Positions 556 through 63,224 of a stretch of DNA of 64,000 nucleotides are shown here, in pieces. The number at the start of each line of letters is the position of its first letter. Position 1 is the stretch's first letter. The notes below the pieces were generated by a model. The model made no database searches, had not been told where the DNA came from, and worked only from the letters and a program-made list of their open reading frames with translations. The position numbers and the translations under genes are program-made. Source of the DNA: Alloalcanivorax mobilis (lineage in GTDB: Bacteria; Pseudomonadota; Gammaproteobacteria; Pseudomonadales; Alcanivoracaceae); contig NZ_NMQZ01000006.1 in the NCBI RefSeq assembly GCF_002864685.1, positions 124,001 to 188,000 on the forward strand, in the 5' to 3' direction.

Positions 556-720
556 GGCGCTGGACGCCGGACGCTAGACGCCGGACGCTAGACGCTGGAC
601 GCTAAACCCGTGCCACCGGCCAGCTTTGCGGGTTTGCAGAAACGTTCTGCGAACCCGCAAGACTTGCGGCCACGGGTTTTGACTTAGCGTCCGGCGTCCG
701 GCGTCTGGCGTCCAGCGCCT
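556..720. repeat. Heptamer-arm inverted repeat, GACGCNN family, copy 1
   Basis: The left arm (556-610) is a run of 7-bp units such as GACGCCG, GACGCTA and GACGCTG ending in AAACCCG. The right arm (673-720) is the complementary run of GGCGTCC/TAGCGTC units. An inner hairpin at 627-659 pairs GCGGGTTTGCAGA with TCTGCGAACCCGC. The element fills the gap between the stop codons of convergent tsaD and plsY. It has no T-tract, so a terminator role is inferred from position and fold. Confidence 0.9.
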
Positions 721-1333
721 AGCTCTTCCTCCGAAACCCCAATTCCTCGCCGCTGAGCAGCTTGGCGAGGTTGGCGCGGTGGCGGATGAACATGATCACG
801 GTGAGGGCGGCCATTGGCCAGAAGGCACCGGGGAGCCAGAACCACAGGCTGATCGGGGCGGCCACGAAGGCGCTCAGCGACGCCACCGAGGAAATCCGGG
901 TGATGCCGAAGACCCCCAGCCAAACGCCGCCGGCGATCAGGCCGCTGAGCCAGTGCAACGGGAACAGCAGACCGAAAGCGGTGGCCACGCCCTTGCCGCC
1001 GCGGAATTGAAAGAACACCGGGAACAGATGGCCGAGAAAAGCGCAGAAGCCGACCAGCGCCACCGCGAACGGCGACAACTCCAGGGCGCGGGCGATCAGC
1101 ACCGGCACGGTGCCTTTGAGCACGTCGCCGAGCAGGGTCAGGGCGGCGGCGGGTTTGCCGCCGATGCGCAGCACATTGGTGGCGCCCGGGTTGCTGGAGC
1201 CCTGGGTGCGCGGGTCGGGGTAACCGAACAGCCGGCACACCAGAATCGCGCTGGACACCGAGCCCAGCAGGTAGGCGCCCGCGCACAAAGCCAACAACCA
1301 GATCCCGCTTTCCTGTAATGCCATGGCGTCCAC
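719..1333 (-). CDS. plsY: Glycerol-3-phosphate acyltransferase PlsY
   Basis: This 204-residue integral membrane acyltransferase uses acyl-phosphate to acylate sn-glycerol-3-phosphate, the first step of phospholipid synthesis. The PlsY motifs are visible: GSVSSAILVCRLFGYPDPR followed by GSSNPGATNVLRIGG near residues 45-60, and GHLFPVFFQFRGGKGVAT near residues 98-115. Several hydrophobic spans match the usual five-helix topology. The start gives a normal family length. The TAG stop overlaps the end of repeat copy 1. It is divergent from folB, a common arrangement in gammaproteobacteria. Confidence 0.97.
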   Translation of the reverse strand: MDAMALQESGIWLLALCAGAYLLGSVSSAILVCRLFGYPDPRTQGSSNPGATNVLRIGGKPAAALTLLGDVLKGTVPVLIARALELSPFAVALVGFCAFLGHLFPVFFQFRGGKGVATAFGLLFPLHWLSGLIAGGVWLGVFGITRISSVASLSAFVAAPISLWFWLPGAFWPMAALTVIMFIRHRANLAKLLSGEELGFRRKS

Positions 1334-1337
1334 CGGC

Positions 1338-1343
1338 TATAAT
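1338..1343 (+). promoter_or_regulatory. Possible -10 element upstream of folB
   Basis: A TATAAT hexamer lies in the plsY/folB divergent gap, about 137 bp before the folB start. No convincing -35 is seen at 16-18 bp, so this is only a weak candidate. Confidence 0.25.
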
Positions 1344-1479
1344 TCCCATTGTGAAGTCCACGGCATTGTACACGCACCGCGTGGCTTGCATGCATACGCG
1401 ATGACCGGCCCGCCCGGGGCATCGCGTCCGCGAACCGTAACAAGAGATGTGGCCGTGCGCACGCGCCACCTGGAGCCCC

Positions 1480-1836
1480 ATGGATATCGTCTATATCAGT
1501 GACCTGAAGGTCAGCACCGTGATCGGCATCTTCGACTGGGAGCGCCGTATCCGCCAGACCGTCAGCCTGGACCTGGAAATGGCCACCGACATCCGCCGCG
1601 CCGCTGCCAGCGACCAGATCGACGACGCCCTGGACTACAAGTCCATCGGCAAACGGGTGATCGCCTTTATCGAGGAAAGCGAATTCCAATTGGTGGAAAC
1701 CCTGGCCGAGAAAGTCGCGCAAATGGTGCGCGAGGAGTTCGGCGTGAGCTGGTTGAAACTGCGCCTGAGCAAGCCCGGCGCGCTGCGTGGCTCGCGCGAC
1801 GTGGGCGTGATCATCGAGCGCGGGGAGCGCGGCTGA
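1480..1836 (+). CDS. folB: Dihydroneopterin aldolase FolB
   Basis: This 118-residue enzyme converts 7,8-dihydroneopterin to 6-hydroxymethyl-dihydropterin in folate synthesis. The protein starts MDIVYISDLKVSTVIGIFDWE, and the GIFDWER segment plus the ALDYKSIGKRVIAFIE region are typical of FolB. I chose the ATG at 1480, preceded by TGGAG, over an upstream in-frame ATG because it matches family length. The stop overlaps the folK start (TGATG), so the two are translationally coupled and act in consecutive steps. Confidence 0.96.
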   Translation: MDIVYISDLKVSTVIGIFDWERRIRQTVSLDLEMATDIRRAAASDQIDDALDYKSIGKRVIAFIEESEFQLVETLAEKVAQMVREEFGVSWLKLRLSKPGALRGSRDVGVIIERGERG

Positions 1837-3547: not shown

Positions 3548-3552
3548 GTGCA

Positions 3553-11121: not shown

Positions 11122-11294
11122 GACGCCGGACGCCGGACGCCTGACGCCGGACGCTAAACCCTTAGTCGGATGGGTGTGACGTGTTTCCTGCTACGTTAGC
11201 GTTACAGAAAACATGCCCATCCTTTCCGCATCGGGTTTTAGCGTCCGGCGTCAGGCGTCCAGCGTCCAGCGTCCAGCGTCCAGCGTCCAGCGTC
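11122..11294. repeat. Heptamer-arm inverted repeat, GACGCNN family, copy 2
   Basis: The left arm (11122-11155) and right arm (11240-11294) are runs of GACGCNN heptamers in opposite orientation. The core carries GACGTGTTTCCTG and TACAGAAAACATG as an inner palindrome. The reverse complement of the core is about 92% identical to that of copy 3 (about 7 differences in 85 bp by eye). The right arm is translated as the end of fbpC. It lies between convergent genes. Confidence 0.9.
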
Positions 11295-12326
11295 CGTGCG
11301 AAACGCCACCAACGGCGTCACCGCCGGTGCCAGGCGAACCCGGCTGCCTTCGGCCAGGCGCGGGTGGCCGGGCAGGCTGCACACCAGTTGCTGGCCGTCG
11401 TTAAGCGCCAGGGTGTACCACACGCGGGCACCACGAAACACGCTGCCCACCACCCGCGCTCGCAGTGGGCCGTGCGGGTCGGTGTGTAAATCCTCCGGTC
11501 GTATCAGCACCTCCACCGGGTCACCGGGGCGGGCGTCGTGCACGGCCGTCACCGGCACGCTGGCACCGTCCAGTTCGGCCTGGCCCGGGTGGCTCAGGCG
11601 TGCTCGCAAAAAACGCCCACGGCCCAGGAATTCCGCCACGAATCGGTTGGCGGGCCGTTGGTAGAGGCGCGCCGGCGTATCCCACTGTTGTATTCGTCCC
11701 TGACGCATCACGCCGAGGCGGTCGGCCATGGCGAAGGCTTCCTGTTGATCGTGAGTGACCATCAGCGCGGTGCTGCCCTGGTCGCGCAGAATGGCGCGCA
11801 CATCGGCGCTGATCTGTTCGCGCAGTTCCGCGTCCAGAGCGGAGAACGGCTCATCCAGCAGCAACAGACGTGGCCGTGGCGCCATCGCCCGGGCCAGCGC
11901 CACGCGCTGCTGCTGGCCGCCGGAAAGCTGGTGTGGGTAGCGCCGGCCGAGCCCGGGCAGGCCCACCCGGTCCAGCAATTCCGCCACCCGCTGGCGGCGC
12001 TGGGAGCGGCGTTCGCGGGGCAGGCCAAAGGCGATGTTGGCGGCCACGTCCAGGTGCGGAAACAGCGCCATGTCTTGAAACACCATGCCCACCCGGCGCT
12101 GCTCCGGCGGCACCGGTTCGCCGGCGCCCAGCATCCGCTCGCCGGCCAGCGTCAGCGCACCGCGCTGGGCGTCCACGAAGCCGGCGATCAGCCGCAGCAA
12201 GGTGGTTTTACCGCAGCCGGAGGGGCCCAGCAGGCAGCCGATCTCGCCTGTTGGCAGGCTCAGGTCGATGCCGTCGAGCACGGTCTGGCCGGCCAGCCGG
12301 ACGTGCACGGCGTCAAGGCGCAGCAT
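11238..12326 (-). CDS. fbpC: Iron(III) ABC transporter ATP-binding protein FbpC-like
   Basis: The 362-residue ATPase powers ferric iron import with FbpA and FbpB. Walker A is GPSGCGKTT (residues 34-42), the signature is LSGGQQQR, Walker B is LLLLDEPFSALD, and VTHDQQEA carries the switch His. A TOBE-like C-terminal domain follows (VEVLIRPEDL). The ATG at 12324-12326 has GAGGAG in front and overlaps the permease end. The last 18 residues (DAGRWTLDAGRWTPDAGR) and the TAA are encoded by repeat copy 2, so the native C-terminus has been replaced or extended. Confidence 0.92.
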   Translation of the reverse strand: MLRLDAVHVRLAGQTVLDGIDLSLPTGEIGCLLGPSGCGKTTLLRLIAGFVDAQRGALTLAGERMLGAGEPVPPEQRRVGMVFQDMALFPHLDVAANIAFGLPRERRSQRRQRVAELLDRVGLPGLGRRYPHQLSGGQQQRVALARAMAPRPRLLLLDEPFSALDAELREQISADVRAILRDQGSTALMVTHDQQEAFAMADRLGVMRQGRIQQWDTPARLYQRPANRFVAEFLGRGRFLRARLSHPGQAELDGASVPVTAVHDARPGDPVEVLIRPEDLHTDPHGPLRARVVGSVFRGARVWYTLALNDGQQLVCSLPGHPRLAEGSRVRLAPAVTPLVAFRTDAGRWTLDAGRWTPDAGR

Positions 12327-13902
12327 GGGCGGTCTCCTCAAGGCGCTGGCCGGGCGGGGCGTTGCCCGGGTCGGATGTGGGCCGCGGGTGATCCAGGGAG
12401 CGGGTCAACAGCAGCACCGGAATCACCCCGGCGAGCAGGATCGCCAGTGCCGGCAGGGCGGCGTCGGCGAGGCGCTCGTCGGAGGCCAGCTCGAAGGCGC
12501 GCACCGCCAGGGTGTTGGTGTTGAACGGGCGCAGCACCAGGGCGGCGGGAAGCTCTTTGAGGGTGTCCACGAACACCAGCAGCGCGGCGCTGGCCAGCGG
12601 CACCCGCAACAGCGGCAGGTGCACCCGGCGCAGCAGGCGCGCCGGGCCGGCACCCAGCGAGCGGGCGGCGTGATCGAGGCTGGGCGGCAATGCCTGAAGG
12701 CCGGCGTCCAGGCTTTGAATGGGAATGGTGGCGAAGCGCACCGTGCAGGCGAACACCACCGCGAACAGGGTACCCGAGAGCAGCAGGCCGGGCGCGGCCA
12801 GGCCAACGGCGCCGGCCAGCCGGTTCACGCCCTGATCGAGCGCGGCCAGCACCAACACCGTGCCCACCGCCAGCACCGTGCCGGGCACCGCGTAGCCGAA
12901 ACCGGCCAGGCTGGCGGCCAGCCGGCGTGGCCGGTCGGGCCGCAGCCGGCGGGCCCAGACCAGCGCCAGGGCCAGCGCGGTGGTGGCCAGCGCCGTGCAC
13001 AGCGCAATCAGCAGGCTGGTGCCGACCAGCTTGAGAAAGTCCGCGTCGCCGGCCTGGGCCAGGCGCGGCAGGCTCCAGATCAGAAGCTGCAGGGCCGGCA
13101 GCACGAAGCCAAGTAGCACCGGCAGGCACAGCGCCAGCGGCACCAGCACCGCCGGTGCCGCGCGCAACGTCAGCGCCGCTGCCGGGCGGGCGTCGCCGCT
13201 CACCCGGCGCTGCCGCCGGGCGCCTCGCTCCAGGGCCAGCAGCGCCACCATCGCCGCCAGCAGCACGGCGGCCAGTTGCGCGGCGGCGAGCCGGTCGCCG
13301 AGCCCGAACCAGGTGCGGAAGATGCCGGTGCTCAGGGTGGGCACGCCGAAGTAGGCCACGGTGCCGTAGTCGGCCAGGGTTTCCATCAGCACCAGCGCCA
13401 GGCCGGCAATGATCGCTGGCCGCGCCAGCGGCAAGGCGACGCGGAAAAACCGCCGGGCCGGGCCGGCGCCGAGGCTGCGCGCCACCTCCTGGGCGAGGGC
13501 CGATTGGTGCACGAAGGCGGCGCGGGCCAGCAGGTAGACATAGGGATACAGCACCAGGGTCAGCATCAGCGCCGCGCCCCAGGGGTTGCGGATGTCGGGC
13601 AGCGCCACCGGCAGCCAGGCCTGCAGCGGCCCTTCCGGGGCCAGCAGGCCGGTCCAGGTGTAGGCAATCAGATAGGCGGGGCAGGCCATTGGGAGCAGCA
13701 GCGCCCATTGCAGGAGCCGATGCCCGGGAAAGCGCAGCCGCGCCACCGCCCAGGCGGCGGCGGTGCCGATCACCAGGGTGCCGCCACCGGTGAGCAGCGC
13801 CAGCAATAACGAGTGCCGCAGATAGACCGGCAACACCGTGGCGGTCAGGTGCGACCACTGCGGCGACGGCCCCGCCAGCCAGCTGCCGGCGACCACCAAC
13901 AC
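12313..13902 (-). CDS. fbpB: Iron(III) ABC transporter permease FbpB-like
   Basis: This is a fused double-length permease (about 529 residues) with two binding-protein-dependent transport domains and around twelve membrane helices. EAA-type loops appear twice: EVARSLGAGPARRFFRVALPLARPAI and HAARSLGAGPARLLRRVHLPLLR. The coordinates use a GTG at 13900-13902, but that start cuts the first helix and has a poor Shine-Dalgarno. A CTG at 13972-13974, preceded by TGAGG overlapping the fbpA stop, would add 24 residues with a complete first helix and is probably the true start. The middle gene of fbpABC. Confidence 0.92.
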   Translation of the reverse strand: MLVVAGSWLAGPSPQWSHLTATVLPVYLRHSLLLALLTGGGTLVIGTAAAWAVARLRFPGHRLLQWALLLPMACPAYLIAYTWTGLLAPEGPLQAWLPVALPDIRNPWGAALMLTLVLYPYVYLLARAAFVHQSALAQEVARSLGAGPARRFFRVALPLARPAIIAGLALVLMETLADYGTVAYFGVPTLSTGIFRTWFGLGDRLAAAQLAAVLLAAMVALLALERGARRQRRVSGDARPAAALTLRAAPAVLVPLALCLPVLLGFVLPALQLLIWSLPRLAQAGDADFLKLVGTSLLIALCTALATTALALALVWARRLRPDRPRRLAASLAGFGYAVPGTVLAVGTVLVLAALDQGVNRLAGAVGLAAPGLLLSGTLFAVVFACTVRFATIPIQSLDAGLQALPPSLDHAARSLGAGPARLLRRVHLPLLRVPLASAALLVFVDTLKELPAALVLRPFNTNTLAVRAFELASDERLADAALPALAILLAGVIPVLLLTRSLDHPRPTSDPGNAPPGQRLEETAHAAP

Positions 13903-17882: not shown

Positions 17883-17899
17883 GGCTTCCTCCGGAAGCA

Positions 17900-18050
17900 G
17901 TTGCAAGTTGAAAGTTTCAAGTTGCAACGCGAAATACGCTTGTAAGCGGCTTTTCCCGACGCGGGCCGCGATTCCGGGTTGTACGCGGGCACCGCCGTTA
18001 AGATTCCCGAAACGCGCCCGCGTTGTAACTTTTAACTTTTCACTTGCAAC
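17900..18050. repeat. Heptamer-arm inverted repeat, GTTNNAA family, copy B1
   Basis: The left arm is exactly four heptamers (GTTGCAA, GTTGAAA, GTTTCAA, GTTGCAA; 17900-17927) then CGCG. The right arm is CGCG then four heptamers (TTGTAAC, TTTTAAC, TTTTCAC, TTGCAAC; 18019-18050). The loop is GC-rich. It begins 5 bp past the prkA stop and separates prkA from yeaH inside an otherwise conserved operon. Confidence 0.9.
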
Positions 18051-18055
18051 TGCAT

Positions 18056-19978
18056 TTATTGCGCCTTGCGCACCCGCAGATACCATTCCGAAAGCAGGCG
18101 CACCTGCTTCTCGGTGTAGCCACGATCCATCATGCGATGCACGAAGTTGTCGTGTTTGCGGCGATCGTCGTCGCTGCCCTTGGGGTTGAACGAAATCACC
18201 GGAAGAAGCTCCTCGGTATTGGAGAACATTTTCTTCTCGATCACGTCGCGCAGCTTTTGGTAGCTCATCCAGCTCGGATTGCGGCCCTGATTGTTGGCGC
18301 GTGCCCGCAGCACGAAATTGACGACTTCGTTGCGGAAGTCCTTGGGATTGGAAATGCCCGCCGGCTTTTCGATTTTCTCCAGTTCTTCATTGAGTGACTG
18401 GCGGTCGAAAATCTCGCCGGTGTCCGGGTCGCGGAACTCCTGATCCTGAATCCAGAAATCGGCGTAGATCACGTAGCGGTCAAAAATGTTCTGGCCGTAT
18501 TCGGAGTAGGATTCCAGATAGGCGGTCTGAATCTCCTTGCCGATGAATTCCACGTAGTGCGGAACCAGGTATTCCTTGATAAAGCGGCGGTACAGTTCCT
18601 GGCGCTCCTGGGCGTACTGTTCCTGCTCGATGCGCTGTTCCAGCACATGCATCAGGTGCACCGGATTGGCGGCCACTTCGGTATGGTCGAAGTTGAACAC
18701 CTTGGAGAGAATCTTGAACGCGAAGCGGGTGGAGAGCCCGTCCATGCCTTCGTCGACGCCCGCCATGTCGCGGTATTCCTGCAGCGATTTGGCGCGCGGG
18801 TCCACATCCTTGAGATTTTCGCCGTCGTAAATGCGCATTTTTGAATAAATGCTGGAGTTTTCCGGTTCCTTGAGCCGGGTCAGCACCGAGAATTGCGCCA
18901 GCATGCGCAGGGTGTCCGGCGCGCACTGGGCGTCGCGCAAGCTGGAATTGCGCAGCAGCTTGTCGTAGATCATCTGTTCTTCGTCGACACGCAGGCAGTA
19001 CGGCACCTTGACGATGTAGACGCGGTCGATAAAGGCTTCGTTGTTCTTGTTGTTGCGGAAGGTTTGCCACTCGGCCTCGTTGGAGTGCGCCAGCACGATG
19101 CCCTCGAAGGGAATCGCGCCCATGTGTTCGGTGCCGTTGTAGTTGCCTTCCTGGGTGGCGGTGAGCAGCGGATGCAGCACCTTGATTGGCGCCTTGAACA
19201 TCTCCACGAATTCCAGCAGCCCCTGGTTGGCCCGGCACAGGCCGCCGGAGAACGCATAGGCATCCGGGTCGTCCTGGCCAAAGTCTTCCAGCTTGCGGAT
19301 GTCCACCTTGCCGACCAGAGCGGAAATGTCCTGGTTGTTCTCGTCGCCGGGTTCGGTTTTGGCCACGGCGATCTGATCGAGAATCGAGGGGTAACGCTTG
19401 ACCACCCGGAACTGGCTGAGGTCGCCGCCGAACTCATGCAGACGCTTGACCGCCCACGGAGACATGATGGTGCGCACATAGCGGCGCGGGATGCCGTATT
19501 CCTCTTCCAGGATCGGGCCGTCTTCGTCGGGGTCGAACAGGCTCAGCGGCGATTCGTTCACCGGCGAGCCCTTGATCGCGTAGAACGGCACTTTCTGCAT
19601 CAGCGCCTTGAGTTTCTCGGCGAGCGAGGACTTGCCGCCGCCCACCGGGCCGAGCAGATAAAGGATTTGTTTCTTTTCTTCCAGGCCCTGGGCGGCGTGG
19701 CGGAAGTAGCTGACGATGTTCTCGATCACGTCTTCGAGGCCGTAGAACTCGTCAAAGGCGGGGTAGCGGCGGATGATCTTGTTGGAAAAGATGCGGGAGC
19801 GGCGGGGGTCTTTGGCGGTGTCCACCAGCTCCGGTTCGCCGATCGCCATCAGCATGCGTTCGGACGCCGTGGCGTAGACGCCGGGGTCGCTTTTGCACAA
19901 CCCGAGGTAGTCCTCGAGGGACATCTCGTCTTCCTGATAGGCGTCAAACCGGGCCTGATAGTGGCGAATAATGCTCAT
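18056..19978 (-). CDS. prkA: Serine protein kinase PrkA (YeaG)
   Basis: The 640-residue PrkA/YeaG has an AAA-type N-terminal domain with Walker [15 protein letters not shown] (about residues 110-118) and a C-terminal kinase-like domain. Landmarks include [89 protein letters not shown] and LAHSNEAEW. Family members act in stationary-phase and nitrogen-starvation responses. Start ATG at 19976-19978 follows AGGAGGGAG. First gene of the prkA-yeaH-spoVR set. Confidence 0.96.
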
Positions 19979-20302: not shown

Positions 20303-20454
20303 TGCGCTGGACGCTGGACGCCGGACGCCGGACGCTAAAACCCGATGCGGGCAGGATGGTCATGTTTTCTGTAACGCTAACGCAGCAGAAAACACGTCAC
20401 ACCAATCCGATTAAGGGTTTGGCGTCTAGCGTCCGGCGTCCGGCGTCCAGCGTC
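20303..20454. repeat. Heptamer-arm inverted repeat, GACGCNN family, copy 3
   Basis: The left arm (20303-20336) and right arm (20418-20454) are GACGCNN heptamer runs; the core has CATGTTTTCTG and CAGAAAACACG. The core closely matches the reverse complement of copy 2. The right arm ends two bases from the apaH stop codon, so the element lies just behind the apaH 3' end. Confidence 0.9.
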
Positions 20455-20455: not shown

Positions 20456-21265
20456 TCAGGAGCAGGGAGCGTGAAACCGCCGCAGATCGTCCAGGCGCAG
20501 GGCGGTGAGGCGATTGCCCCACACACAGCCGGTGTCGAGCGCTTCCACCCGCTCGACGCCGGTGTGACCTTCGAGTGCGGCCCAGTGGCCGAACAGCACG
20601 CGACCGCCGTACTGGCGGCGCGGGTGCTCGAACCAGGGCATGAAGCCCGCTGGCGGCTGGTCCGCCTCGCCCTTGCTGGCCAGATCCAGCTCGCCGGCGT
20701 CGTTGACGAAGCGCATGCGGGTGAAATAGTTGGTGATCACCCGCCAGCGGGCCGGGCCTTGCAGGGTGTCGTCCCAGCCGGCGGGGGTGTTGCCGTACAT
20801 ATTGGCGAAGTAATCCGGGGCCCGGGCCGGGTCGGCCAGCACCGCCTCGACCTCGCGGGCGCGCTCGCGGGCCTCGGCCAGGCTCCACAGCGGCGGCAAG
20901 CCGGCGTGGGCCATCACCGCGTCGAATTCGGGCACCTCCACCAGCAGCGGTTGGCGCTGCAGCCAGGCCAGCAGGCGGGGGCCGTCGGTGGCGTCCAGAA
21001 TCGGCTGCAGGGTATCGTGTTTCTTCAGCCTGGCGTGGCCGTGGGCCACCGCCAGCAAGTGCAGGTCGTGGTTGCCCAGCACCACCTGGACGTCGTCGCC
21101 AAGCGCATGCGCCCGGCGCAGCGTGCCCAGGGAATCCGGCCCACGATTGACCAGGTCCCCGGCCAGCAACAGCCGGTCCCGCCCGGCCGCGAACCCGATC
21201 CGCTCCAGCAACGCCTCGAACGGCCCCAGACAGCCCTGTAGATCGCCGATCACGTAGGTGCTCAT
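20456..21265 (-). CDS. apaH: Bis(5'-nucleosyl)-tetraphosphatase, symmetrical (ApaH)
   Basis: The 269-residue metallophosphatase hydrolyses Ap4A to two ADP and can remove Np4 caps from RNA. The phosphoesterase motifs are clear: YVIGDLQGC, LAGDLVNRGPDSLGTLR, VVLGNHDLHLLAVAHG and MAHAGLPPLWS, with FGHWAALEG and LDTGCVWG near the C-terminus. Order with apaG, rsmA and pdxA is as in E. coli, but a 180-bp gap filled by repeat copy 4 separates it from apaG. Its TGA is two bases from repeat copy 3. Confidence 0.97.
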   Translation of the reverse strand: MSTYVIGDLQGCLGPFEALLERIGFAAGRDRLLLAGDLVNRGPDSLGTLRRAHALGDDVQVVLGNHDLHLLAVAHGHARLKKHDTLQPILDATDGPRLLAWLQRQPLLVEVPEFDAVMAHAGLPPLWSLAEARERAREVEAVLADPARAPDYFANMYGNTPAGWDDTLQGPARWRVITNYFTRMRFVNDAGELDLASKGEADQPPAGFMPWFEHPRRQYGGRVLFGHWAALEGHTGVERVEALDTGCVWGNRLTALRLDDLRRFHAPCS

Positions 21266-21278: not shown

Positions 21279-21442
21279 CACGTCTGGCGTCTGACGTCGG
21301 ACGTCGGACGCTAAACCCGGAACCTGTAAGGTTGATCGTGTTTTCTGCCGCGTTCCAGATAGTAAACACTCCGATGATTTCAGCCACGGGTTAAAGCGTC
21401 CGACGCCCGACGTCCGACGTCCGACGTCCGACGCCCGACGTG
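21279..21442. repeat. Heptamer-arm inverted repeat, GACGCNN family, copy 4 (GACGTCG variant)
   Basis: This copy uses mainly GTCGGAC/GACGTCG units instead of GACGCCG, on both arms (21279-21313 and 21393-21442). The core keeps AAACCCG, CGTGTTTTCTG and AGTAAACACT. Matching variants on both arms imply arms co-evolve. It lies behind apaG and before apaH, three bases from the apaG stop. Confidence 0.88.
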
Positions 21443-29094: not shown

Positions 29095-29775
29095 ATGGCC
29101 AAGCAGGACTTCTGGATCGCGCCTTCCATTCTCGCCGCCGACTTCGCGCGGCTGGGCGAGGAGTGCGACGCGGTGCTCGCCGCCGGCGCCGACGTGATTC
29201 ACTTCGACGTCATGGACAACCACTACGTGCCCAACCTGACCATCGGGCCGATGGTGTGCAAGGCGCTGCGCAAGCACGGCGTGACCGCGCCCATCGACGT
29301 GCACCTGATGGTCAGCCCGGTGGACGATCTGATCGGCATGTTCGCCGATGCCGGGGCGTCCATGATCACTTTTCATCCGGAAGCCTCCCGCCACGTGGAC
29401 CGCTCCCTGCAACTGATCCGCGACGCTGGCTGCCAGGCCGGGCTGGTGCTCAACCCGGCCACCGGCCCGGAGTGCCTGGACTACGTGATGGACAAACTGG
29501 ACATGGTGCTGCTGATGAGCGTCAACCCGGGGTTCGGTGGCCAGTCGTTCATTCCCGGCACCCTCAACAAAATCGAGCGGGTCCGTGAGCGGATCGACGC
29601 CAGCGGCCGCGCCATCCGCCTGGAAGTGGACGGCGGCGTCTCCGAAAAGAACATCGGCCAGGTGGCCGCCGCCGGCGCCGACACCTTCGTCGCCGGCTCA
29701 GCGATCTTCGGCAAGGACGATTACAAGGCGGTGATTGATGCCATGCGGGGGGAGTTGAAGGACGCCGGACGCTAG
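29095..29775 (+). CDS. rpe: Ribulose-phosphate 3-epimerase
   Basis: The 226-residue TIM-barrel enzyme interconverts ribulose-5-P and xylulose-5-P. Motifs: [81 protein letters not shown] and AGSAIFG. ATG 29095 has GAGGA upstream. The last four residues (DAGR) and the TAG stop are encoded by the first heptamers of repeat copy 5, so the gene end was rewritten by the repeat. In many genomes rpe precedes gph and trpE, but here trp lies 12 kb away. Confidence 0.96.
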
Positions 29776-29923
29776 ACGCCGGACGCCGGACGCTAAAAAA
29801 ACCGGCCCCGAGCCGATTGGCGCGCGCAAAACGCTCTTGCGTAGCCGCAATGCCGTCAGCGATGGGTTTTGACTTTGGCGTCCGGCGTCCGGCGTCCGGC
29901 GTCTGGCATCCCGCGTCCAACGC
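29761..29923. repeat. Heptamer-arm inverted repeat, GACGCNN family, copy 5
   Basis: The left arm (29761-29795) begins inside the rpe coding sequence and supplies its stop codon; the right arm spans about 29876-29923 with degenerate outer units. The core differs from the GTGTTT type and carries a short CGCAAAACG/CTTGCG hairpin, like copy 1. It lies between two genes in the same direction. Confidence 0.88.
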
Positions 29924-33004: not shown

Positions 33005-33009
33005 CACCA

Positions 33010-33097
33010 GTTAAAAGTGAAAAGTTGAAAGCGCGGGCAAGGCCTTGCCGCCATTGGGGCCTGCCCGCGTTTCAACTTTCAACTTGTAACTTTCAAC
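33010..33097. repeat. Heptamer-arm inverted repeat, GTTNNAA family, copy B2
   Basis: Left arm GTTAAAA, GTGAAAA, GTTGAAA (33010-33030) then GCGCGGGC; right arm GCCCGCG then TTTCAAC, TTTCAAC, TTGTAAC, TTTCAAC (33070-33097). At 88 bp it is the shortest copy, with a GGCAAGGCCTTGCC palindrome in the loop. It lies between convergent OYE and MFS genes. Confidence 0.9.
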
Positions 33098-41378: not shown

Positions 41379-41559
41379 AAGTTGAAGGTGAAAAGTTAAA
41401 AGTTGAAAGCGCGGGTGAGGGCCTCGGAGCCGAGGAGCCGTGCCCGCGAAGAGACATAGAGCCTCTCAGCATCCTCAATCGTCGGGGCGCGGCCGCCGCG
41501 GCTTTCAAAGTGCACAGGGTCTCACCCGCGCTTTCAACTTTTCACCTTCAACTTTCAAC
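41375..41559. repeat. Heptamer-arm inverted repeat, GTTNNAA family, copy B3
   Basis: Left arm: a 6-bp degenerate unit GTAAAA (containing the regA stop) then GTTGAAG, GTGAAAA, GTTAAAA, GTTGAAA (41381-41408) and GCGCGGGTGAG. Right arm: CTCACCCGCGC then TTTCAAC, TTTTCAC, CTTCAAC, TTTCAAC (41532-41559). The loop has smaller hairpins. It sits between convergent regA and the PNPOx-family gene. Confidence 0.9.
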
Positions 41560-46306: not shown

Positions 46307-46451
46307 GTTGAAGGTTAAAAGTTGAAACGCGGCCGGCGCTGGTCGTGCACCCAACGAAGGAGGCCGCGCCGGGATGCCCGGGCGCGGCCTCTTCTCCTTT
46401 CGGCCGCACCGGGGTGGGCCGCGTTTCAACTTTTAACCTTCAACTTTCAAC
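46307..46451. repeat. Heptamer-arm inverted repeat, GTTNNAA family, copy B4
   Basis: Left arm GTTGAAG, GTTAAAA, GTTGAAA (46307-46327) then CGCGGCC; right arm GGCCGCG then TTTCAAC, TTTTAAC, CTTCAAC, TTTCAAC (46424-46451). A strong inner hairpin (GGCCGCGCC with GGCGCGGCC) lies in the loop. It separates convergent trpC and crp. Confidence 0.9.
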
Positions 46452-46472
46452 TCATTGTGACCGGGCCGCGCC

Positions 46473-48805: not shown

Positions 48806-48945
48806 ACGCCTGACGCCTGACGCCTGACGCCTGACGCTAAACCCGTAACCTGAAGGGTGTGGTGTGTTTCCTGCCATTCAGTAAACACACCATTGCTGTC
48901 CGCGCTGGGTTAGGCGTCTGGCGTCCGGCGTCTGGCGTCCGGCGT
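48806..48945. repeat. Heptamer-arm inverted repeat, GACGCNN family, copy 6
   Basis: Left arm (48806-48839) is mainly TGACGCC units; right arm (48909-48945) is GGCGTCT/GGCGTCC. The core has GGTGTGTTTCCTG and CAGTAAACACACC. The core is about 92% identical (6 differences in about 73) to the reverse complement of copy 7, on the other side of coq7. It separates convergent speD and coq7. Confidence 0.9.
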
Positions 48946-48959
48946 GTCCAGCTCGCCCC

Positions 48960-49607
48960 TCAAAGCCGATACGTGCTAAACGTCATCACCTTGCTCATCA
49001 ACGCCATCGCCCCTTTGATCGGTGGGGGCAGGGGGGCGCCGCCGGCGTCGCTGGCGGTGATGGCGTGGCGCAGTTCGTCTTCGCGCATCTGGGTAAGGAT
49101 GGCGCGGCTGCGCAGGTCGTTGTCGGGCAGGCGGGTGAGGTGATCTTCCAGGTGGCGCACCACCTGCTGTTCGGTTTCGGAGACGAAACCCAGGCTCCAG
49201 CGGTCGCCGGCCAGACCGGCGCCGGCGCCGAGGGCGTAGCTGATCGCGTAGAACAGCGGATTGAGGTGGCTGGGTACGCTGCCCAGTTCCAGAATCCGGT
49301 CTTCGCACCAGGCCAAATGGTCTTCTTCTTCGCGGGCGGCTTCTTCCATGGCGTGGCGCGCGTGGGGCAGGGTGGCGGTGCTGGCCTGGCCCTGGTAGAG
49401 CGCTTGGGCACACACTTCGCCGGTGTGGTTGATGCGCATCAAGCCAGCCACATGGCGTCGCAGGGTGTCCGGCAGGGGCGCGTCCTCGCCATTCACGGGG
49501 GCCGGGTTCTGGCGCTCCGCCCGGGTGGTGCCGGGGGTCAGGGTGCGCAGGGCGTTGTCGACCCGGCTGAGCAGCCGGTCCAGGGAAGAGAGCTGTCGGG
49601 CGGTCAT
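48960..49607 (-). CDS. coq7: 2-nonaprenyl-3-methyl-6-methoxy-1,4-benzoquinol hydroxylase Coq7
   Basis: The 215-residue di-iron hydroxylase catalyses the penultimate step of ubiquinone synthesis. Carboxylate/His ligands are in LMRINHTGEVCAQALYQGQ, AAREEEDHLAWCEDRI and QMREDELRHA. Coq7 replaces UbiF in many gammaproteobacteria. The gene is bracketed by repeat copies 6 and 7 in opposite orientation, forming a potentially invertible cassette of about 0.7 kb. Confidence 0.96.
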   Translation of the reverse strand: MTARQLSSLDRLLSRVDNALRTLTPGTTRAERQNPAPVNGEDAPLPDTLRRHVAGLMRINHTGEVCAQALYQGQASTATLPHARHAMEEAAREEEDHLAWCEDRILELGSVPSHLNPLFYAISYALGAGAGLAGDRWSLGFVSETEQQVVRHLEDHLTRLPDNDLRSRAILTQMREDELRHAITASDAGGAPLPPPIKGAMALMSKVMTFSTYRL

Positions 49608-49660
49608 GTTGGGCTCCGGAGCGGGGTTGTCGGCATGCTAGCGTTAATGGTGGGGGGAGG

Positions 49661-49854
49661 CTAGACGCTAGACGCCGGACGCCGGACGCCGGACGCCGGA
49701 CGCCGGACGCCTGACGCCTGACGCCTGACGCCTGACGCCTGACGCTAAACCCGGCGCGGACAGCAATGGTGTGTTTACTGAACGGCAGGAAACACACCGC
49801 ACTCTTCAGGCTAAGGGTTTAGCGTCCGGCGTCCGGCGTCCGGCGTCCAGCGTC
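49661..49854. repeat. Heptamer-arm inverted repeat, GACGCNN family, copy 7 (expanded arm)
   Basis: The left arm holds twelve consecutive heptamers (49661-49744): two CTAGACG, five CCGGACG, five CCTGACG, then CTAAACC. The right arm (49815-49854) has only about five. The unequal arms point to slippage-type expansion. The core is the inverted near-copy of copy 6. The right end supplies two bases of the TGA stop of the hybrid kinase gene. Confidence 0.92.
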
Positions 49855-52609
49855 AATCCCCCCGAGTAAACCGCACCAAAGCCTCCCGCAACACATTGAT
49901 CTCCACCGGCTTGGGGATATGGGCGTTCATGCCGGAGGCGAGGCTGCGTTCGCGGTGCTCGCGCAGGATGTGCGCGGTGAGTGCGACGATCGGCACCGGC
50001 GCCAGGCCGTGTTCGCGCTCGTGTTGGCGAATCCGGCGGGTGGCCTCGAAGCCGTCCATTTCCGGCATTTCGCAATCCATCAGGATCAGATCGTAGCGGT
50101 TTTGTGATGCCATTTGCAGGGCCTCGCGGCCGTTGGCGGCGAGCTCGGCATCCAGGCCCAGCTTGTTGAGCATGCCTCGAATCACTTTCTGGCTGAGCTT
50201 GTGGTCCTCCACCACCAGCAGGCGCAGGCCCGGGTCGGGGGCTTGCTGACGGCCCGGTTCCGGGTGGCGCCGTTGCAGGCCGAGCTCCTCGGCCAGCACC
50301 TGTTTCAGACGCGGCGCCGACACCGGTTTGCTGAGCACCCGGTGGATGCCCACGTTGCGCGCCTCGGTGGCGGTGGGGGCATTATTGACACCGGTCAGCA
50401 TGATCAGGATCGCCGGGTGGGTGATCACCGGGTCTTCCTGAATGCGGGTGGCCAGTTGCATGCCGTTGATGCCCGGCATCAGGTGATCCAGCAGCACCAC
50501 GTCGTAGGGCTCGTTGAGATTGGCCTGGGTGCGTAACGAGGCCAGGGCTTCGCGGGGGTCGTGGCAGGCGGTGACGCGCATGCCCCAGCTCAACGCCAGA
50601 TGGCGGATCACCCGGGTCACGGTGCTGGAGTCATCGACCACCAGCATGCTGCGGCCCTGCAGGGCGGAAATGTCGGTATCGATGCGCGGCTGGGGCGATT
50701 CCAGCGCCGGCAGGGGCACCACGAACCAGTACAGCACTTCGCTGCCGTGCTCATCGCGGAAGCCGCTGCGTCCGCCCATCGCTTCAAGCAATTGCTCGGC
50801 GATGGAAAGATTCAGGCCACTGCTGTCCTGGCGGGCGCTGCTCTCGCGCAATTCCACAATGGTGCCGGCGCGCAGCGCCGAGCCGCCCAGTTCGAAGCGC
50901 ACCTGGCCGGCGCGGCCGGTGGGGTCCAGGGAAATATCGATGACCAGTTCGCCGGGCTGGGCGCGGCGGATCAGCGCGCCGATCAGGTTGGTGAGCACCT
51001 GACGCAGGCGGCCGGGATCGCCTTCCATGCGCTCGGGCAGGTTGGTGTGCACATGGGTGATCAGCTCGATCTGTTTCTCTTCGGCCCGTTCGCGGAACAG
51101 TTCCACCGCGTCCATCAACAGTTCATTGGCGTTCAGCGCCTCGCGGTTGATGTCCGCGCCCTGGGTGGAAAGCTGTGAGTATTCGAGCACGTCGTTGATG
51201 ATCTTGAGCAAGCTTTCGCCGGCGTTACGAATGCCGCCGACACAGTCTTTCTGGTTGGGCGTCAGCGGTGTGTCCTCGAGGATTTCGGCCATGCCGAGAA
51301 TGCCGCTGAGCGGGGTGCGCACATCGTGCCCCATGCGTGACAGGGTTTCCCGGCGGGTGGTGTCGGCGGTCTCTTCCACGGTCTGGCTGCGCCGCCGTTC
51401 CATCAGCAGGCGCAGGTCGCGTTGTTGTTGCAGCCGTAGCCCCACCGCCTGCACCACGCCGGCCAGGTTAACGGTGATCAGCAGGCACAGCGCCAGGTCA
51501 AGATCGTTCTGCAGCACCCCGATCATCGACAGGCAACTCACCACCACCGGGCTGCCGACCAGCAGGCTGCTGAGAAAATACAGCGTGCCCAGCGGCACTT
51601 CCCGGTGCCAGGCCAGCACCCCCAGGGTGACCAGCGCGGCGGCGGCGATCAGGGCGAAGCCATAGGCCAGCATGAACGCCACGGTAATCGGCAGCCAGGG
51701 CATCACCAGCAGAGACAACGGCCCGATGATCATCAGGACTTGCAGAAAACGGTCCAGGTAGGGCGCGTGGCGGCGGCTGTTGACGAAAGTACGGCCCACG
51801 CCACAGACGCTGGCCAGGGCCAGCATCAGGGTGGCGATTTTCAAGGGCGGCACCAGCGGGCCCCAGAAATCGTTGCCTGCCAGGGTTCCGGAGGAAACCA
51901 GGATCAGCGCCACCAGAAAGATCAGAAAGCCGGCGTGATAGGCGTGGCTGTGCGCTGAGCGCATCACCGCCACCAGCGCGTTGTACAGCGCCAGGGTCAG
52001 CATCATGCCCAGCAGCAGCCAGTACAGTGAGAACGCCGGGTCGTTGCTCATCGCCGCGGGCAGGGTGGTCAGCCGCAGCGAATAGACCAGGCTGCCGTGG
52101 GCGTTGATGCGCCAGTAATAGACGCGCGGCTGGCCCACCGGCAAGTCCAGCAGTTGCACCGGGGTGCGGTGCTGGAAGTGCTCGCTGGCGGCGGAAGGGC
52201 GGTAGCCGGAAGGCCCGGGCCGATAGAAGACGCTGTCGTGATAGTGGCGGGTGCCCAGCACCAGGGCGAACAGGCTCTGGCCGGCCATTTCGTTCTGGAT
52301 CGACACTCGCACCCACCAGGGGTGATCGCTCAGGCCGAGCCGCTCGACGAACCGCGATGCCGGTTGGAAGTCGCCGTCAAAGCGGCCGCTGGCGATGTCC
52401 GCCACGCTCAGTGTGCCGCCGGGATCGGGCAGGTACTCGGAATAGATGGTAATGCGGGCGTCCTGGGGCAGGCTGCCTATCACGAAGGGCGGCGGCGGGG
52501 AGGCGTGGCTGGCGCTGGCCAGCAAGGTGGTCAGCACGATCAGCGGCCACCAGAAAGCGGCCGGCCGCCGCCGGCGTGGTTGACGAGGTGATCGATCCCC
52601 AGTGCCCAT
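49853..52609 (-). CDS. 7TMR-DISM hybrid histidine kinase with two receiver domains, degenerate ATPase
   Basis: The 918-residue protein has a signal peptide (about residues 20-36), a 7TMR-DISM-like periplasmic domain (about 40-185), seven membrane helices (about 193-395), a HisKA domain with SRMGHDVRTPLSGILG (His428), an HATPase-like domain (about 538-645), and two receivers with Asp708 (LLDHLMPG) and Asp845 (LMDCEMPEMDG). In the ATPase region the N-box reads RQVLTNLIGALIRRA and no DxGxG G1 box is visible; G2 is SSGLNLSI. It may act without ATPase activity, like a RetS-type modulator. ATG 52607-52609 fits the signal peptide. Confidence 0.88.
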   Translation of the reverse strand: MGTGDRSPRQPRRRRPAAFWWPLIVLTTLLASASHASPPPPFVIGSLPQDARITIYSEYLPDPGGTLSVADIASGRFDGDFQPASRFVERLGLSDHPWWVRVSIQNEMAGQSLFALVLGTRHYHDSVFYRPGPSGYRPSAASEHFQHRTPVQLLDLPVGQPRVYYWRINAHGSLVYSLRLTTLPAAMSNDPAFSLYWLLLGMMLTLALYNALVAVMRSAHSHAYHAGFLIFLVALILVSSGTLAGNDFWGPLVPPLKIATLMLALASVCGVGRTFVNSRRHAPYLDRFLQVLMIIGPLSLLVMPWLPITVAFMLAYGFALIAAAALVTLGVLAWHREVPLGTLYFLSSLLVGSPVVVSCLSMIGVLQNDLDLALCLLITVNLAGVVQAVGLRLQQQRDLRLLMERRRSQTVEETADTTRRETLSRMGHDVRTPLSGILGMAEILEDTPLTPNQKDCVGGIRNAGESLLKIINDVLEYSQLSTQGADINREALNANELLMDAVELFRERAEEKQIELITHVHTNLPERMEGDPGRLRQVLTNLIGALIRRAQPGELVIDISLDPTGRAGQVRFELGGSALRAGTIVELRESSARQDSSGLNLSIAEQLLEAMGGRSGFRDEHGSEVLYWFVVPLPALESPQPRIDTDISALQGRSMLVVDDSSTVTRVIRHLALSWGMRVTACHDPREALASLRTQANLNEPYDVVLLDHLMPGINGMQLATRIQEDPVITHPAILIMLTGVNNAPTATEARNVGIHRVLSKPVSAPRLKQVLAEELGLQRRHPEPGRQQAPDPGLRLLVVEDHKLSQKVIRGMLNKLGLDAELAANGREALQMASQNRYDLILMDCEMPEMDGFEATRRIRQHEREHGLAPVPIVALTAHILREHRERSLASGMNAHIPKPVEINVLREALVRFTRGD

Positions 52610-52740
52610 GATGTTCCCAATCCCTGTTGTCGCGGCGCTCCGAGTTTGGCGCTTCCCCGGCGCCGCTGCACCGCCAGAGGATAAAGGCATCGCCGGGGTC
52701 GCGTCGACCGCAGCCTCCATGACAGCGCGGTGGCGCGGGG

Positions 52741-56059: not shown

Positions 56060-56210
56060 GTCGGACGCCTGACGCCTGACGCCTGACGCTGGACGCCGGA
56101 CGCCTGACGCTAAACCCTGGCTCCGAAAGGCACGAAGTGTTTTCTGCCTTGCTCTCAGGAAACACGTCATACTTCCCCGTTTCCGGGTTGAGCGTCCGGC
56201 GTCCAGCGTC
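56060..56210. repeat. Heptamer-arm inverted repeat, GACGCNN family, copy 8
   Basis: The left arm has seven heptamers (GTCGGAC, GCCTGAC, GCTGGAC, GCCGGAC mix; 56060-56108); the right arm (56184-56210) is shorter. The core shares AGTGTTTTCTGC...CTCTCAGGAAACACG with copy 9. It lies behind the purH 3' end and contributes to its TGA stop. Confidence 0.9.
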
Positions 56211-57791: not shown

Positions 57792-57892
57792 GGTGACGCT
57801 GGCACGCTTCACGCAACACGCTTTCACGCGGGGGTGTGAGCGGTTTTGTGGGGGGCGTGCCAGCGTGCAGCGTGTTGCGTGTTAGCGTTACC
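57792..57892. repeat. Heptamer-arm inverted repeat, NNCACGC family, copy C1
   Basis: The left arm (57792-57829) reads GGTGACGC, TGGCACGC, TTCACGC, AACACGC, TTTCACGC; the right arm (57855-57892) is the complement of GGTAACGC, TAACACGC, AACACGC, TGCACGC, TGGCACGC. Units are 7-8 bp and unrelated in sequence to the other families, but the architecture is the same. It lies behind the fis terminator and before purH. Confidence 0.85.
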
Positions 57893-57921
57893 AAAAAGAA
57901 AGGGGCAGTTTCCACTGCCCC
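57893..57921 (-). terminator. Intrinsic terminator of the dusB-fis unit
   Basis: GGGGCAGT and ACTGCCCC form a perfect 8-bp stem with a 4-nt loop, 17 bp past the fis stop, and on the minus strand TTTCTTTTT follows directly. This is a classic Rho-independent terminator, the best in the window. Confidence 0.85.
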
Positions 57922-57938
57922 CGACATTACGGATTGCT

Positions 57939-61628: not shown

Positions 61629-61757
61629 GGCGGCTCCTGAACAAGGGAGGGCGGAGAAGTCGGCGGCAGTATAAGCCAAGCCCCGCCAGGGAGGCGATTT
61701 TTTCACCCGGCGGGAGTACCATGGAGATTCCATTTTGCCCCTCACCGTTGTGTCGCT

Positions 61758-62339
61758 ATGACCGAGAACGCCGCCGAACTGGTTCTGGTACTGATGACCT
61801 CCGCCAGCCTTTTGCTGCACTGGCTGGGCGTGCGCCGGCCGGTGCGCGCCCGGCACCGCCCGGCGCCGCCGCTGGACGTGGAGCAACTGGTGCTGGTGAC
61901 TCTGGTGGCGATCACCATGGTGGTGATTCCGCTGCTCGATAACCTGGTGCCCTGGTTTGAATTCGCCGACTTCATGTTCCTGGATGAGTTCGCCTGGTTT
62001 GGCCTGATGCTGGGTGCCGCCGCGGTATGGCTGTTCTGGCGGGCCAACAGCGACTGGGCCAGCCGCCACCCCGGTGATGGCACCACGGTCATGGATCGCG
62101 GCGTCTACCGTTATCTGCGTCACCCGGTGTACGCCGCCATGTTGCTGTGGTCGCTGGCGCAATTGCTGCTGCTGCAGAACTGGCTGGCCGGGCCGGCGGC
62201 GGCACTGACGTTTATTCTCGTCTATCTGTTGCGGGTGCCTGTGGAAGAACAGCAGCGCCTGGAGCGGCATGGTCACCGTTATCTCGATTACATGGAACGT
62301 ACCGGGGCGATCGTGCCCCGTTTCACGCGCCAGCGTTAA
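61758..62339 (+). CDS. Isoprenylcysteine methyltransferase-like (PEMT/ICMT) membrane protein
   Basis: The 193-residue protein has four to five hydrophobic helices and the ICMT-type SAM signature: GVYRYLRHPVYAAMLLWSLAQLLL and PVEEQQRLERHGHRYLDYMERT. Such bacterial proteins are presumed membrane-embedded methyltransferases of uncertain substrate. Along with the next gene it is inserted between accC and prmA, genes that are adjacent in pseudomonads. Confidence 0.85.
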   Translation: MTENAAELVLVLMTSASLLLHWLGVRRPVRARHRPAPPLDVEQLVLVTLVAITMVVIPLLDNLVPWFEFADFMFLDEFAWFGLMLGAAAVWLFWRANSDWASRHPGDGTTVMDRGVYRYLRHPVYAAMLLWSLAQLLLLQNWLAGPAAALTFILVYLLRVPVEEQQRLERHGHRYLDYMERTGAIVPRFTRQR

Positions 62340-62404
62340 GCCGCGGGGTGGGGCCTGGCAATGCTCGGCTCGGCCCGCCTCGTTCACCAAGGAGACTCGC
62401 CGTC

Positions 62405-63067
62405 ATGATTCGTATCCATCCTCTCAGCCGCGAACAGCTTGAGCGCGTGGTGGAGCGGTCGGAAGTGGTGGAGCGGGACAGCCACGGGATCAAGGTTCTC
62501 AGGCTTGAGGACGGGCGTTACCTGAAATATTTTCGTCGCAAGCGCTATTTCAACCGGGAGTTGCTGTCGCCGGCGGCGGTGCGCTTTGCCCGCCACGCGC
62601 GCCAGCTCGACCGCCTGCGCATTCCCACTGTTGAGGTCGAGAGCCTGCATCGGATCATTGGCGAGCCGCACACCGTGGCGGTGTACCGACCGATGCCCGG
62701 CGATACTTTACGCGCGCTGCTGGCGCGCAACGCGGTGGACACCCAGACGCTCTACCGGGTCGGCGTGTTCCTGGCGCGGTTGCACCGCCAAGGCGTATTT
62801 TTCCGCTCGGTGCACCCGGGCAACATCGTCATCGACGGGCTGCGCATCGGGCTGATCGACCTGCTCGATATGAAAGTGCGCCCCTGGTCCATGTCACGCT
62901 GGGCGCGGCGGCGTAACTGGGGCCATTTTTTGCGCTGCGAGGAAGACCGCCCGCACCTGCGCGCGGAACTGATCGATGCCCTGTTGTTCGGCTACCGCGA
63001 CGCCGCGGATTTGCCGTTCAGTGAGGTGCGTGAAGTGGCGGAGCGGATTCGGGATTATTTGTTTTAG
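62405..63067 (+). CDS. Lipopolysaccharide-kinase-like (RfaY/WaaP fold) protein
   Basis: The 220-residue protein resembles small kinases of the Kdo/WaaP fold, such as RfaY and Pseudomonas 'toluene tolerance' proteins. KVLRLEDGRYLKYFRRKRYFNRE includes the putative ATP-binding Lys, and FFRSVHPGNIVIDGLRIGLIDLLDM resembles the catalytic and metal-binding loops (HPGN, D). It probably phosphorylates a sugar of the outer core or another glycan. ATG 62405 follows AAGGAGA. Ends 2 bp before repeat copy 9. Confidence 0.82.
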   Translation: MIRIHPLSREQLERVVERSEVVERDSHGIKVLRLEDGRYLKYFRRKRYFNRELLSPAAVRFARHARQLDRLRIPTVEVESLHRIIGEPHTVAVYRPMPGDTLRALLARNAVDTQTLYRVGVFLARLHRQGVFFRSVHPGNIVIDGLRIGLIDLLDMKVRPWSMSRWARRRNWGHFLRCEEDRPHLRAELIDALLFGYRDAADLPFSEVREVAERIRDYLF

Positions 63068-63069
63068 GG

Positions 63070-63224
63070 CTGGATGCTAGACGCCGGACGCCGGACGCCG
63101 GACGCTAAACCCGTTGCTGAGATTCTCGGTGTGTTTTCTGCTTCGTTCTCAGGAAACACACCAACGGTTTCCGTCTCGGGTTTAGCGTCCGGCGTCCGGC
63201 GTCCGGCGTCTGGCGCCAGGCGTC
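63070..63224. repeat. Heptamer-arm inverted repeat, GACGCNN family, copy 9
   Basis: The left arm (63070-63107) has GATGCTA, GACGCCG (three) and GACGCTA units; the right arm (63178-63224) has GGCGTCC units. The core holds GGTGTGTTTTCTG and CAGGAAACACACC. It separates the convergent kinase and accC genes and its end forms part of the accC TGA stop. Confidence 0.9.

What the first reader, a model, noticed from the sequence alone, without database searches (positions are those of the whole stretch)
556..63224. Fourteen large inverted repeats with tandem-heptamer arms mark gene 3' ends
Three unrelated sequences (GACGCNN x9, GTTNNAA x4, NNCACGC x1) form inverted repeats of about 90-195 bp whose arms are runs of 7-bp units. 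Every copy lies behind a gene 3' end, at 0-50 bp. Seven of fourteen are between convergent genes and none lie between divergent genes. A shared 7-bp period across unrelated sequences argues for selection on architecture rather than sequence. They resemble neither REP/BIME elements nor the one-sided heptanucleotide tandem repeats of cyanobacteria that I know of. Possible roles: bidirectional terminators, RNA 3'-end protection, or a mobile element.
Basis: partly seen in the sequence, partly recalled or inferred. Interest (0 to 1): 0.88.

Follow-up and report, generated by a model that had tools for sequence, protein, structure and literature searches.

The report
Heptamer-armed hairpins capping gene ends
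In some oil-degrading marine bacteria, many genes end in a large DNA hairpin whose two arms are runs of 7-letter units; the 7-letter, mirror-image design and its place behind the stop codon are kept while the letters differ between species.

Summary
Confirmed, and much larger than the window. The genome is Alcanivoracaceae-like (best named matches Alloalcanivorax and Alcanivorax). All 14 inverted repeats are real. In 462 kb, 7 bp (with its multiple 14) is the only over-represented intergenic tandem period; in 845 kb, 49 matched array pairs are inverted and none direct. Of 57 placeable elements 22 are between convergent, 32 between co-directional and 3 between divergent genes. In 12 of 13 genomes of the genus one of two AT-rich dialects dominates, and one junction carries unrelated heptamers in different species. 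For the AT-rich type of relatives, 81 of 87 arms read in sense behind a stop codon; 46 of 62 are paired between convergent genes, 3 of 19 between co-directional ones. Best reading: gene-3'-end hairpins, with a bidirectional terminator in the AT-rich type and probably a 3'-end or intercistronic RNA barrier in the others. A like layout is published for GGGAATC repeats of Xanthomonas and tied there to G-quadruplexes; families without G-runs show that quadruplexes cannot explain the layout in general. New variant of a known kind; function untested.

The parts
556..719 (.). GACGC-type element between convergent genes
   Evidence: ends at the stop codons at 555 (+) and 719 (-)
11122..11295 (.). GACGC-type element between convergent genes; right arm overlaps the called end of gene 11238-12341 (-); core 91% identical, inverted, to the one at 20305
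17897..18053 (-). AT-rich type (GTTGCAA/GTTTCAA) behind prkA (18056-19978 -)
20305..20454 (-). GACGC-type element behind apaH (20456-21265 -)
21280..21442 (-). GACGTC variant between gene 21446-21838 (-; called apaG by recall) and apaH; no element at this junction in 8 of 9 congeners
29760..29918 (+). GACGC-type element overlapping the end of gene 29092-29775 (+)
33009..33097 (.). AT-rich type (GTTAAAA) with short core, convergent genes
41381..41559 (.). AT-rich type (GTTGAAA), convergent genes
46307..46452 (.). AT-rich type (GTTGAAA) around a GC-rich inner hairpin, between trpC and crp (convergent)
48806..48945 (.). GACGC-type element between speD and coq7 (convergent); by eye at least 16 of 31 relatives' loci hold AT-rich heptamers behind coq7 here
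49657..49863 (-). GACGC-type element behind a hybrid histidine kinase gene (49853-52720 -); left arm of about 12 units; core 91% identical, inverted, to the one at 48806
56064..56210 (-). GACGC-type element at the purH|purD junction (gene names recalled); congeners hold GTTGAAA, ACAGGAT or CACGC heptamers, or nothing
57797..57888 (-). CACGC-type inverted heptamers, units 7-8 bp apart; a terminator-like hairpin lies between them and the stop codon at 57939 (-)
63073..63224 (.). GACGC-type element between convergent genes

Best explanation
These are gene-3'-end hairpin modules made of a tandem 7-bp arm, a core and an inverted 7-bp arm, set a few bases behind stop codons. SHOWN: position, inverted-only pairing, 7-bp period, species dialects, strong predicted folds. 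INFERRED: they act as RNA structures. In the AT-rich type the core often holds an intrinsic terminator readable from both sides, and each gene end tends to bring one arm in sense orientation, so two converging genes give a palindrome. In the GACGC and minor types, mostly without a U-tract, the long hairpin probably stops 3'-to-5' exonucleases and so fixes or stabilises the RNA end of the upstream gene, also between co-transcribed genes. Arms lengthen by 7-bp slippage, each arm on its own; element sequence is spread and homogenised between loci by copying or gene conversion, often between nearby inverted copies. The sequence can therefore be replaced while layout and place persist.
For: Inverted only: 49 inverted and 0 direct period-7 pairs in 845 kb. 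Gene ends: 22 convergent, 32 co-directional, 3 divergent of 57 (p = 7e-5 convergent excess, 7e-4 divergent deficit against intergenic regions of 60 bp or more); in the 32 co-directional cases median 4.5 bp from the upstream stop codon, and nearer the stop than the next gene in 27. AT-rich type in relatives: 81 of 87 arms in sense behind a stop codon; paired in 46 of 62 convergent and 3 of 19 co-directional cases (Fisher p = 8e-6; many are orthologous sites; by distinct genes 12 of 13 against 2 of 5, p = 0.044). In 500 kb of G039: 12 of 13 arms against 2 of 5, p = 0.044. Terminator-like sites readable both ways in 9 of 14 and 6 of 13 AT-rich elements of relatives, 1 each in shuffles. All 59 own elements fold better than 20 base-shuffles each, weakest z -3.0. 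The variable 4th base agrees between arms in G031 (13 elements, r = 0.98, p = 0.00065) and G029 (8, r = 0.97). Arrays recur at the same gene ends of ten species (sum of squares 159 against 85 permuted, 0 of 3000; includes shared descent).
Against: No transcript data for these species. In the AT-rich type, RNA ending at the central terminator lacks the second arm, so arms could pair only in read-through RNA or in DNA. 16 of 62 convergent arms are unpaired (4 with a weak partner). In the window genome the AT-rich type is mostly two-armed in co-directional places too (7 of 9 arms). First-base agreement between arms is weak in G029 (r = 0.09). GACGC arms show no fine covariation or length matching. 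Terminator-like sites in 8 and 9 of 28 GACGC elements (4 both ways) are only about twice the shuffles (4 and 3; 0 both ways), in own AT-rich elements 3 of 15 both ways, in 16 minor-type elements 2 one way; one-way hits occur in up to 5 of 13 shuffles. A. marinus has coq7 and speD about 20 bp apart with no element, so they are dispensable. 3 of 57 are between divergent genes. The count of genes with arrays in two or more species is not above permuted (11 against 11.8). In Xanthomonas, heptamer repeats that cannot form G-quadruplexes, used as controls, showed fewer transcript starts and stops than those that can.
Confidence: 0.5

Rival explanations
1. Selfish palindromic elements (MITE- or REP-like) that copy themselves and survive mainly behind stop codons because insertions elsewhere are removed by selection.
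For: GACGC hits are 733 (own), 513 (G008) and 128 (G012) but 0-17 in the other ten genomes of the genus; the junction in front of apaH holds an element in only 1 of 9 congeners; three core pairs are over 90% identical.
Against: No target-site duplication (mean shared word 3.1 against 3.0 permuted, p = 0.17, 28 elements) and no fixed outer end: 2-12 units per arm. 0 of 30 RAYT (PF01797) loci have a 7-bp array, background 14% (the 30 loci are part of the hits and include none from this genome). Eight co-directional elements lie -1 to 17 bp from the stop although 82-327 bp are free on the other side, and one arm per gene end in the AT-rich type is not expected from passive tolerance.
Confidence: 0.28
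2. DNA-level function: arms extrude as cruciforms or bind a protein and absorb supercoiling or block polymerases where genes converge, as proposed for REP/BIME and gyrase (recalled).
For: Convergent excess; strong single-strand DNA fold of one copy; arms agree in dialect although RNA ending at the core terminator would hold only one.
Against: Many unrelated unit sequences in one genome do not suit one binding protein; single-armed copies exist.
Confidence: 0.12
3. Neutral by-product: 7-bp slippage of the polymerase in relaxed gene-end DNA, without function.
For: Runs of identical NN letters within single arms; heptamers are the commonest intergenic tandem repeats in many prokaryotes (PMC6344855, passages); a slippage explanation of 7 nt is cited in PMC4679880 (passages).
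Against: Slippage alone would not give 49 inverted to 0 direct pairs, one unit sequence at many loci of a genome, or agreement between arms.
Confidence: 0.07
4. G-quadruplex elements, as proposed for Xanthomonas GGGAATC repeats.
For: Like layout behind stop codons in Xanthomonas, and there the quadruplex-forming repeats show more transcript starts and stops than those that cannot form them.
Against: Units such as GTTRAYA, GTTGAAA and AGTKTTC have no runs of G and share the layout.
Confidence: 0.03

Closest known systems
GGGAATC heptameric repeats of Xanthomonas (PMC4692102; passages and sections 10, 13, 15 read)
   Different: One G-rich unit and a quadruplex reading; here many unrelated units, species dialects, shared cores, some with terminators, and different heptamers at one junction.
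Heptanucleotide tandem repeats as the commonest intergenic tandem repeats (PMC6344855; passages read)
   Same: 7-bp period, intergenic; function stated as unclear.
   Different: No inverted pairing or gene-end rule in the passages read.
TAACTGA repeats of Beggiatoaceae (PMC4679880; passages read)
   Same: Intergenic heptamers in many copies.
   Different: Mostly direct and upstream of start codons; 169 direct sets and one inverted.
REP/BIME and RAYT
   Same: Dispersed extragenic palindromes near gene ends (recalled).
   Different: Tandem-heptamer arms; no link to the 30 RAYT loci looked at.
Bidirectional intrinsic terminators
   Same: Core of many AT-rich elements.
   Different: Extra heptamer arms; most GACGC and minor types lack a hairpin plus U-tract.

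Membership tests
Heptanucleotide tandem repeats (Xanthomonas GGGAATC type) | Tandem units of 7 bp, over-represented between genes | tested here: met
Heptanucleotide tandem repeats (Xanthomonas GGGAATC type) | Close behind stop codon in sense, often as inverted pair | tested here: met
Heptanucleotide tandem repeats (Xanthomonas GGGAATC type) | G-rich unit able to form quadruplexes | tested here: not met
   unit sequences
REP/BIME with RAYT | Elements flank or accompany a RAYT gene | tested here: not met
   0 of 30 RAYT loci with a 7-bp array (none of the 30 from this genome); RAYT counts of 2-5 per genome of the genus do not follow GACGC copy number
MITE | Target-site duplication and fixed terminal inverted repeats | tested here: not met
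   28 GACGC elements of this genome only
Bidirectional intrinsic terminator | Hairpin followed by U-tract in both directions | tested here: inconclusive
   AT-rich type: 9 of 14 and 6 of 13 in relatives, 3 of 15 in own genome; GACGC 4 of 28; minor types 0 of 16
Bidirectional intrinsic terminator | Transcripts end there | not testable with these tools
   no RNA data for these species
Known RNA family (Rfam 15) | Reaches a family's gathering score | tested here: not met
   0 matches in the window

The most novel reading that the evidence does not exclude
A class of gene-end element that is inherited as architecture rather than sequence: a genome-wide process keeps rewriting the 7-bp arms and cores, so that related species hold different dialects at matching gene ends, with local inverted copying as the visible trace. 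Heptamer repeats of Xanthomonas and others would be dialects of the same thing, and quadruplexes at most an extra there.
Probability: 0.27. Interest if true: 0.82.

Novelty: new variant of a known kind. Interest (0 to 1): 0.64.

Why it matters
Tandem heptamers are reported as the most abundant intergenic tandem repeats in a wide range of prokaryotes, with 'no clear clue' to function (PMC6344855, passages). Here they follow simple rules (inverted, in sense, just behind stop codons, in the AT-rich type about one arm per gene end), which makes the open question testable with term-seq and arm-swap reporters, and they show that the layout does not need G-quadruplexes.

Tried and rejected
All-frame stop-codon cassette: rejected on inspection, because units such as AGTKTTC, AGCCGCA and ACAGGAT hold no stop and the third unit of one dialect (GTGGAC) loses it. 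RAYT/REP origin: no support. MITE with target duplications: no support. Fine base-pair covariation in GACGC arms: absent; in GACGC cores 1 of 11 predicted pairs has both sides changed in some sequence. Equal arm length: no. Rfam: no hit. Spread in the order: one stretch of 17-20 kb from each of 20 genomes (19 outside the family, 1 of another genus in it) showed 2 period-7 arrays and no inverted pair, so the feature looks patchy; in the 46 loci outside the family the census counts 3 inverted period-7 pairs, and its listing shows four paired elements (three in Halopseudomonas or Pseudomonadaceae, one in Exilibacterium). Paper searches that gave nothing nearer than the three papers cited: (listings only, apart from the passages and sections cited). 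Gene calls are from my own dicodon caller, not a published annotation; starts are approximate, and a few large or negative distances are probably caller errors.
Full report
WHAT IS THERE. The 14 inverted repeats are real. The window lies in a 4.1-Mb, 92-contig genome; the best matches to a window kinase are Alloalcanivorax and Alcanivorax records (records very near the window's own may be left out of that list). I called genes with a dicodon model of my own. In the window 7 elements lie between convergent and 7 between co-directional genes.

PERIOD AND PAIRING. In 462 kb, 57 intergenic arrays (and 5 coding) have period 7; every other period from 4 to 15 has 0-2 intergenic ones, except 14, the double of 7, with 37; a Markov control gives none. 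In 845 kb, at a looser threshold, 145 period-7 arrays include 49 inverted matched pairs within 330 bp and no direct one; of the other periods from 5 to 15, period 14 has 21 inverted pairs, period 6 one inverted and period 9 one direct. Period 7 per Mb at score 12 or more: own 141, congeners 33 (period 6 there: 22), the Alcanivorax-like set 82, loci of other families 22, twenty single stretches from other genomes of the order 5.

PLACE. Of 59 paired elements in 845 kb, 22 are convergent, 32 co-directional, 3 divergent and 2 at sequence ends. Against intergenic regions of 60 bp or more (62 convergent, 227 co-directional, 80 divergent of 369) the convergent excess has p = 7e-5 and the divergent deficit p = 7e-4. 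In co-directional cases the element starts a median 4.5 bp from the upstream stop codon; eight lie -1 to 17 bp from it although 82-327 bp are free before the next gene. In 500 kb of another genome, G039, 18 paired elements are 8 convergent, 10 co-directional, 0 divergent, with 45 of 231 regions divergent.

FAMILIES. The own sample holds units GACGCNN (28 of 59), GTTGAAA-like (15), and GTTGCAA, AGCTGCA, AGCCGCA, AGTTTTC, AGTGTTC, ACAGGAT, AACACGC and GACGTC types (16 together). GACGC elements close with TAAACCC...GGGTTTA or near forms around one of two central hairpin kinds (13 and 13 of 28 cores; 2 others). Many AT-rich elements have a core near 100 bp; in many relatives at coq7-speD and crp-trpC it includes a hairpin with AAGAGGCCGCGCCC or a close form (by eye).

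DIALECTS. Pattern RTKRAYA x3 gives 60-175 matches in each of G004-G011 but 0-6 in G000-G003 and G012; pattern RGTTRAA x3 gives 52-207 in G000-G003 but 0-8 in G004-G012 (13 genomes of the genus; overlapping matches, not elements; reversed-pattern controls up to 24 and 17). So 12 of 13 have one dominant AT-rich dialect and G012 neither. In the sister genus both coexist: in G039 eight of 18 paired elements have unit AAAGTTG (the GTTGAAA type) beside RTKRAYA ones. GACGC x3 gives 733, 513 and 128 in G000, G008 and G012 and 0-17 in the other ten.

SAME PLACE, OTHER LETTERS. At purH|purD (names recalled) the window has GACGC, G003 GTTGAAA, G001 ACAGGAT and G012 (by eye) CACGC heptamers, G005-G007 a bare 28-bp gap; three others lack the upstream gene in the fetched stretch. 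Three loci of Halopseudomonas or Pseudomonadaceae have AGCCGCA/AGCTTGA-type arms at what looks like the same junction. At coq7-speD at least 16 of 31 loci show AT-rich heptamers behind coq7 by eye, in varied dialects (7 of the 8 nearest, L051-L057 and L063), the eighth, A. marinus, nothing, the window GACGC. At the junction in front of apaH 8 of 9 congeners have none; G008 has GACGC, the window GACGTC. Arrays recur at the same gene ends across ten species more than permuted (sum of squares 159 against 85, 0 of 3000), though the count of genes with arrays in two or more species does not (11 against 11.8), and shared descent contributes.

ARMS BELONG TO GENE ENDS. For (RTKRAYA)3+ arms in relatives (3 arms inside called genes set aside), 81 of 87 are in sense orientation behind a stop codon; 46 of 62 are paired when genes converge, 3 of 19 when they run the same way (p = 8e-6). 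Many are orthologous sites; collapsed to 18 distinct genes: 12 of 13 against 2 of 5, p = 0.044. G039 alone: 12 of 13 arms against 2 of 5 (its first 100 kb were also). So in that type a palindrome is largely two gene ends facing each other. In the window genome both types are mostly two-armed whatever the context (AT-rich 20 of 22 convergent and 7 of 9 co-directional arms; GACGC 16 of 16 and 34 of 41), so this rule is not universal.

COUPLING OF ARMS. In G031, elements with A and with G at the fourth base of the unit coexist and the two arms agree (13 elements, r = 0.98, p = 0.00065; G029, 8 elements, r = 0.97); the first base agrees less (r = 0.69 and 0.09) and the sixth moderately (0.56 and 0.65). 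In G039 the fourth base does not vary; the first and sixth agree (8 elements, r = 0.97 and 0.84). Against this, GACGCNN arms do not match in NN, and one crp-trpC copy has arms of different dialect (L057).

SPREAD. Among 29 GACGC/GACGTC cores the three most similar pairs (91-92%) lie 0.9-9.2 kb apart and are all inverted; 20 pairs in all lie within 12 kb. That fits local inverted conversion or copying. No target duplication and no fixed ends, no RAYT link in the 30 loci looked at.

HOW IT PROBABLY WORKS. Many AT-rich elements look like a bidirectional terminator with arms; most GACGC and minor elements look like long hairpins without terminator tails, in three or four window junctions between genes that some relatives keep 13-43 bp apart, where a strong terminator should be harmful. 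I therefore favour RNA 3'-end and intercistronic hairpins. This step is inferred. In published RNA-seq of Xanthomonas, transcripts started or stopped more often at G4-forming heptamer repeats than at control repeats that cannot form them (section 15 read): a link of such repeats to RNA ends, but also a point for quadruplexes there.

RELATION TO THE KNOWN. PMC4692102 describes for GGGAATC in Xanthomonas the four-unit preference, closeness to stop codons on the coding strand, rarity between divergent ORFs and 70 and 75 inverted pairs. The present families share that layout without G-runs, so quadruplexes cannot explain the layout in general. In the held library I did not find this layout described for Alcanivorax (searches; listings only).

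Noticed in passing
window 48806-49863; own contig C4 92727-93999: Neighbouring elements share cores 91-92% identical in inverted orientation, suggesting local inverted conversion.
   Followed up: partly
L057, coq7-speD and crp-trpC junctions: REP-like GTGGGAGC...GCTCCCAC hairpins replace the usual core at two nearby loci, apparently inverted to each other by eye, with a mixed-dialect arm pair at one.
   Followed up: no
RAYT loci L213-L242: GTRGGAGC words occur near 12 of 30 RAYT loci against 19% of 360 background stretches.
   Followed up: no
G017 (another genus of the family): 29 hits to the reversed control pattern (CGCAGNN x3), so possibly yet another heptamer family there.
   Followed up: no
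window 57797-57938: A terminator-like hairpin lies between the stop codon and the heptamer palindrome, the reverse of the AT-rich order.
   Followed up: no
G039 sample, a convergent element: One arm is a run of about 18 GTGAACA units facing a 4-unit arm.
   Followed up: no
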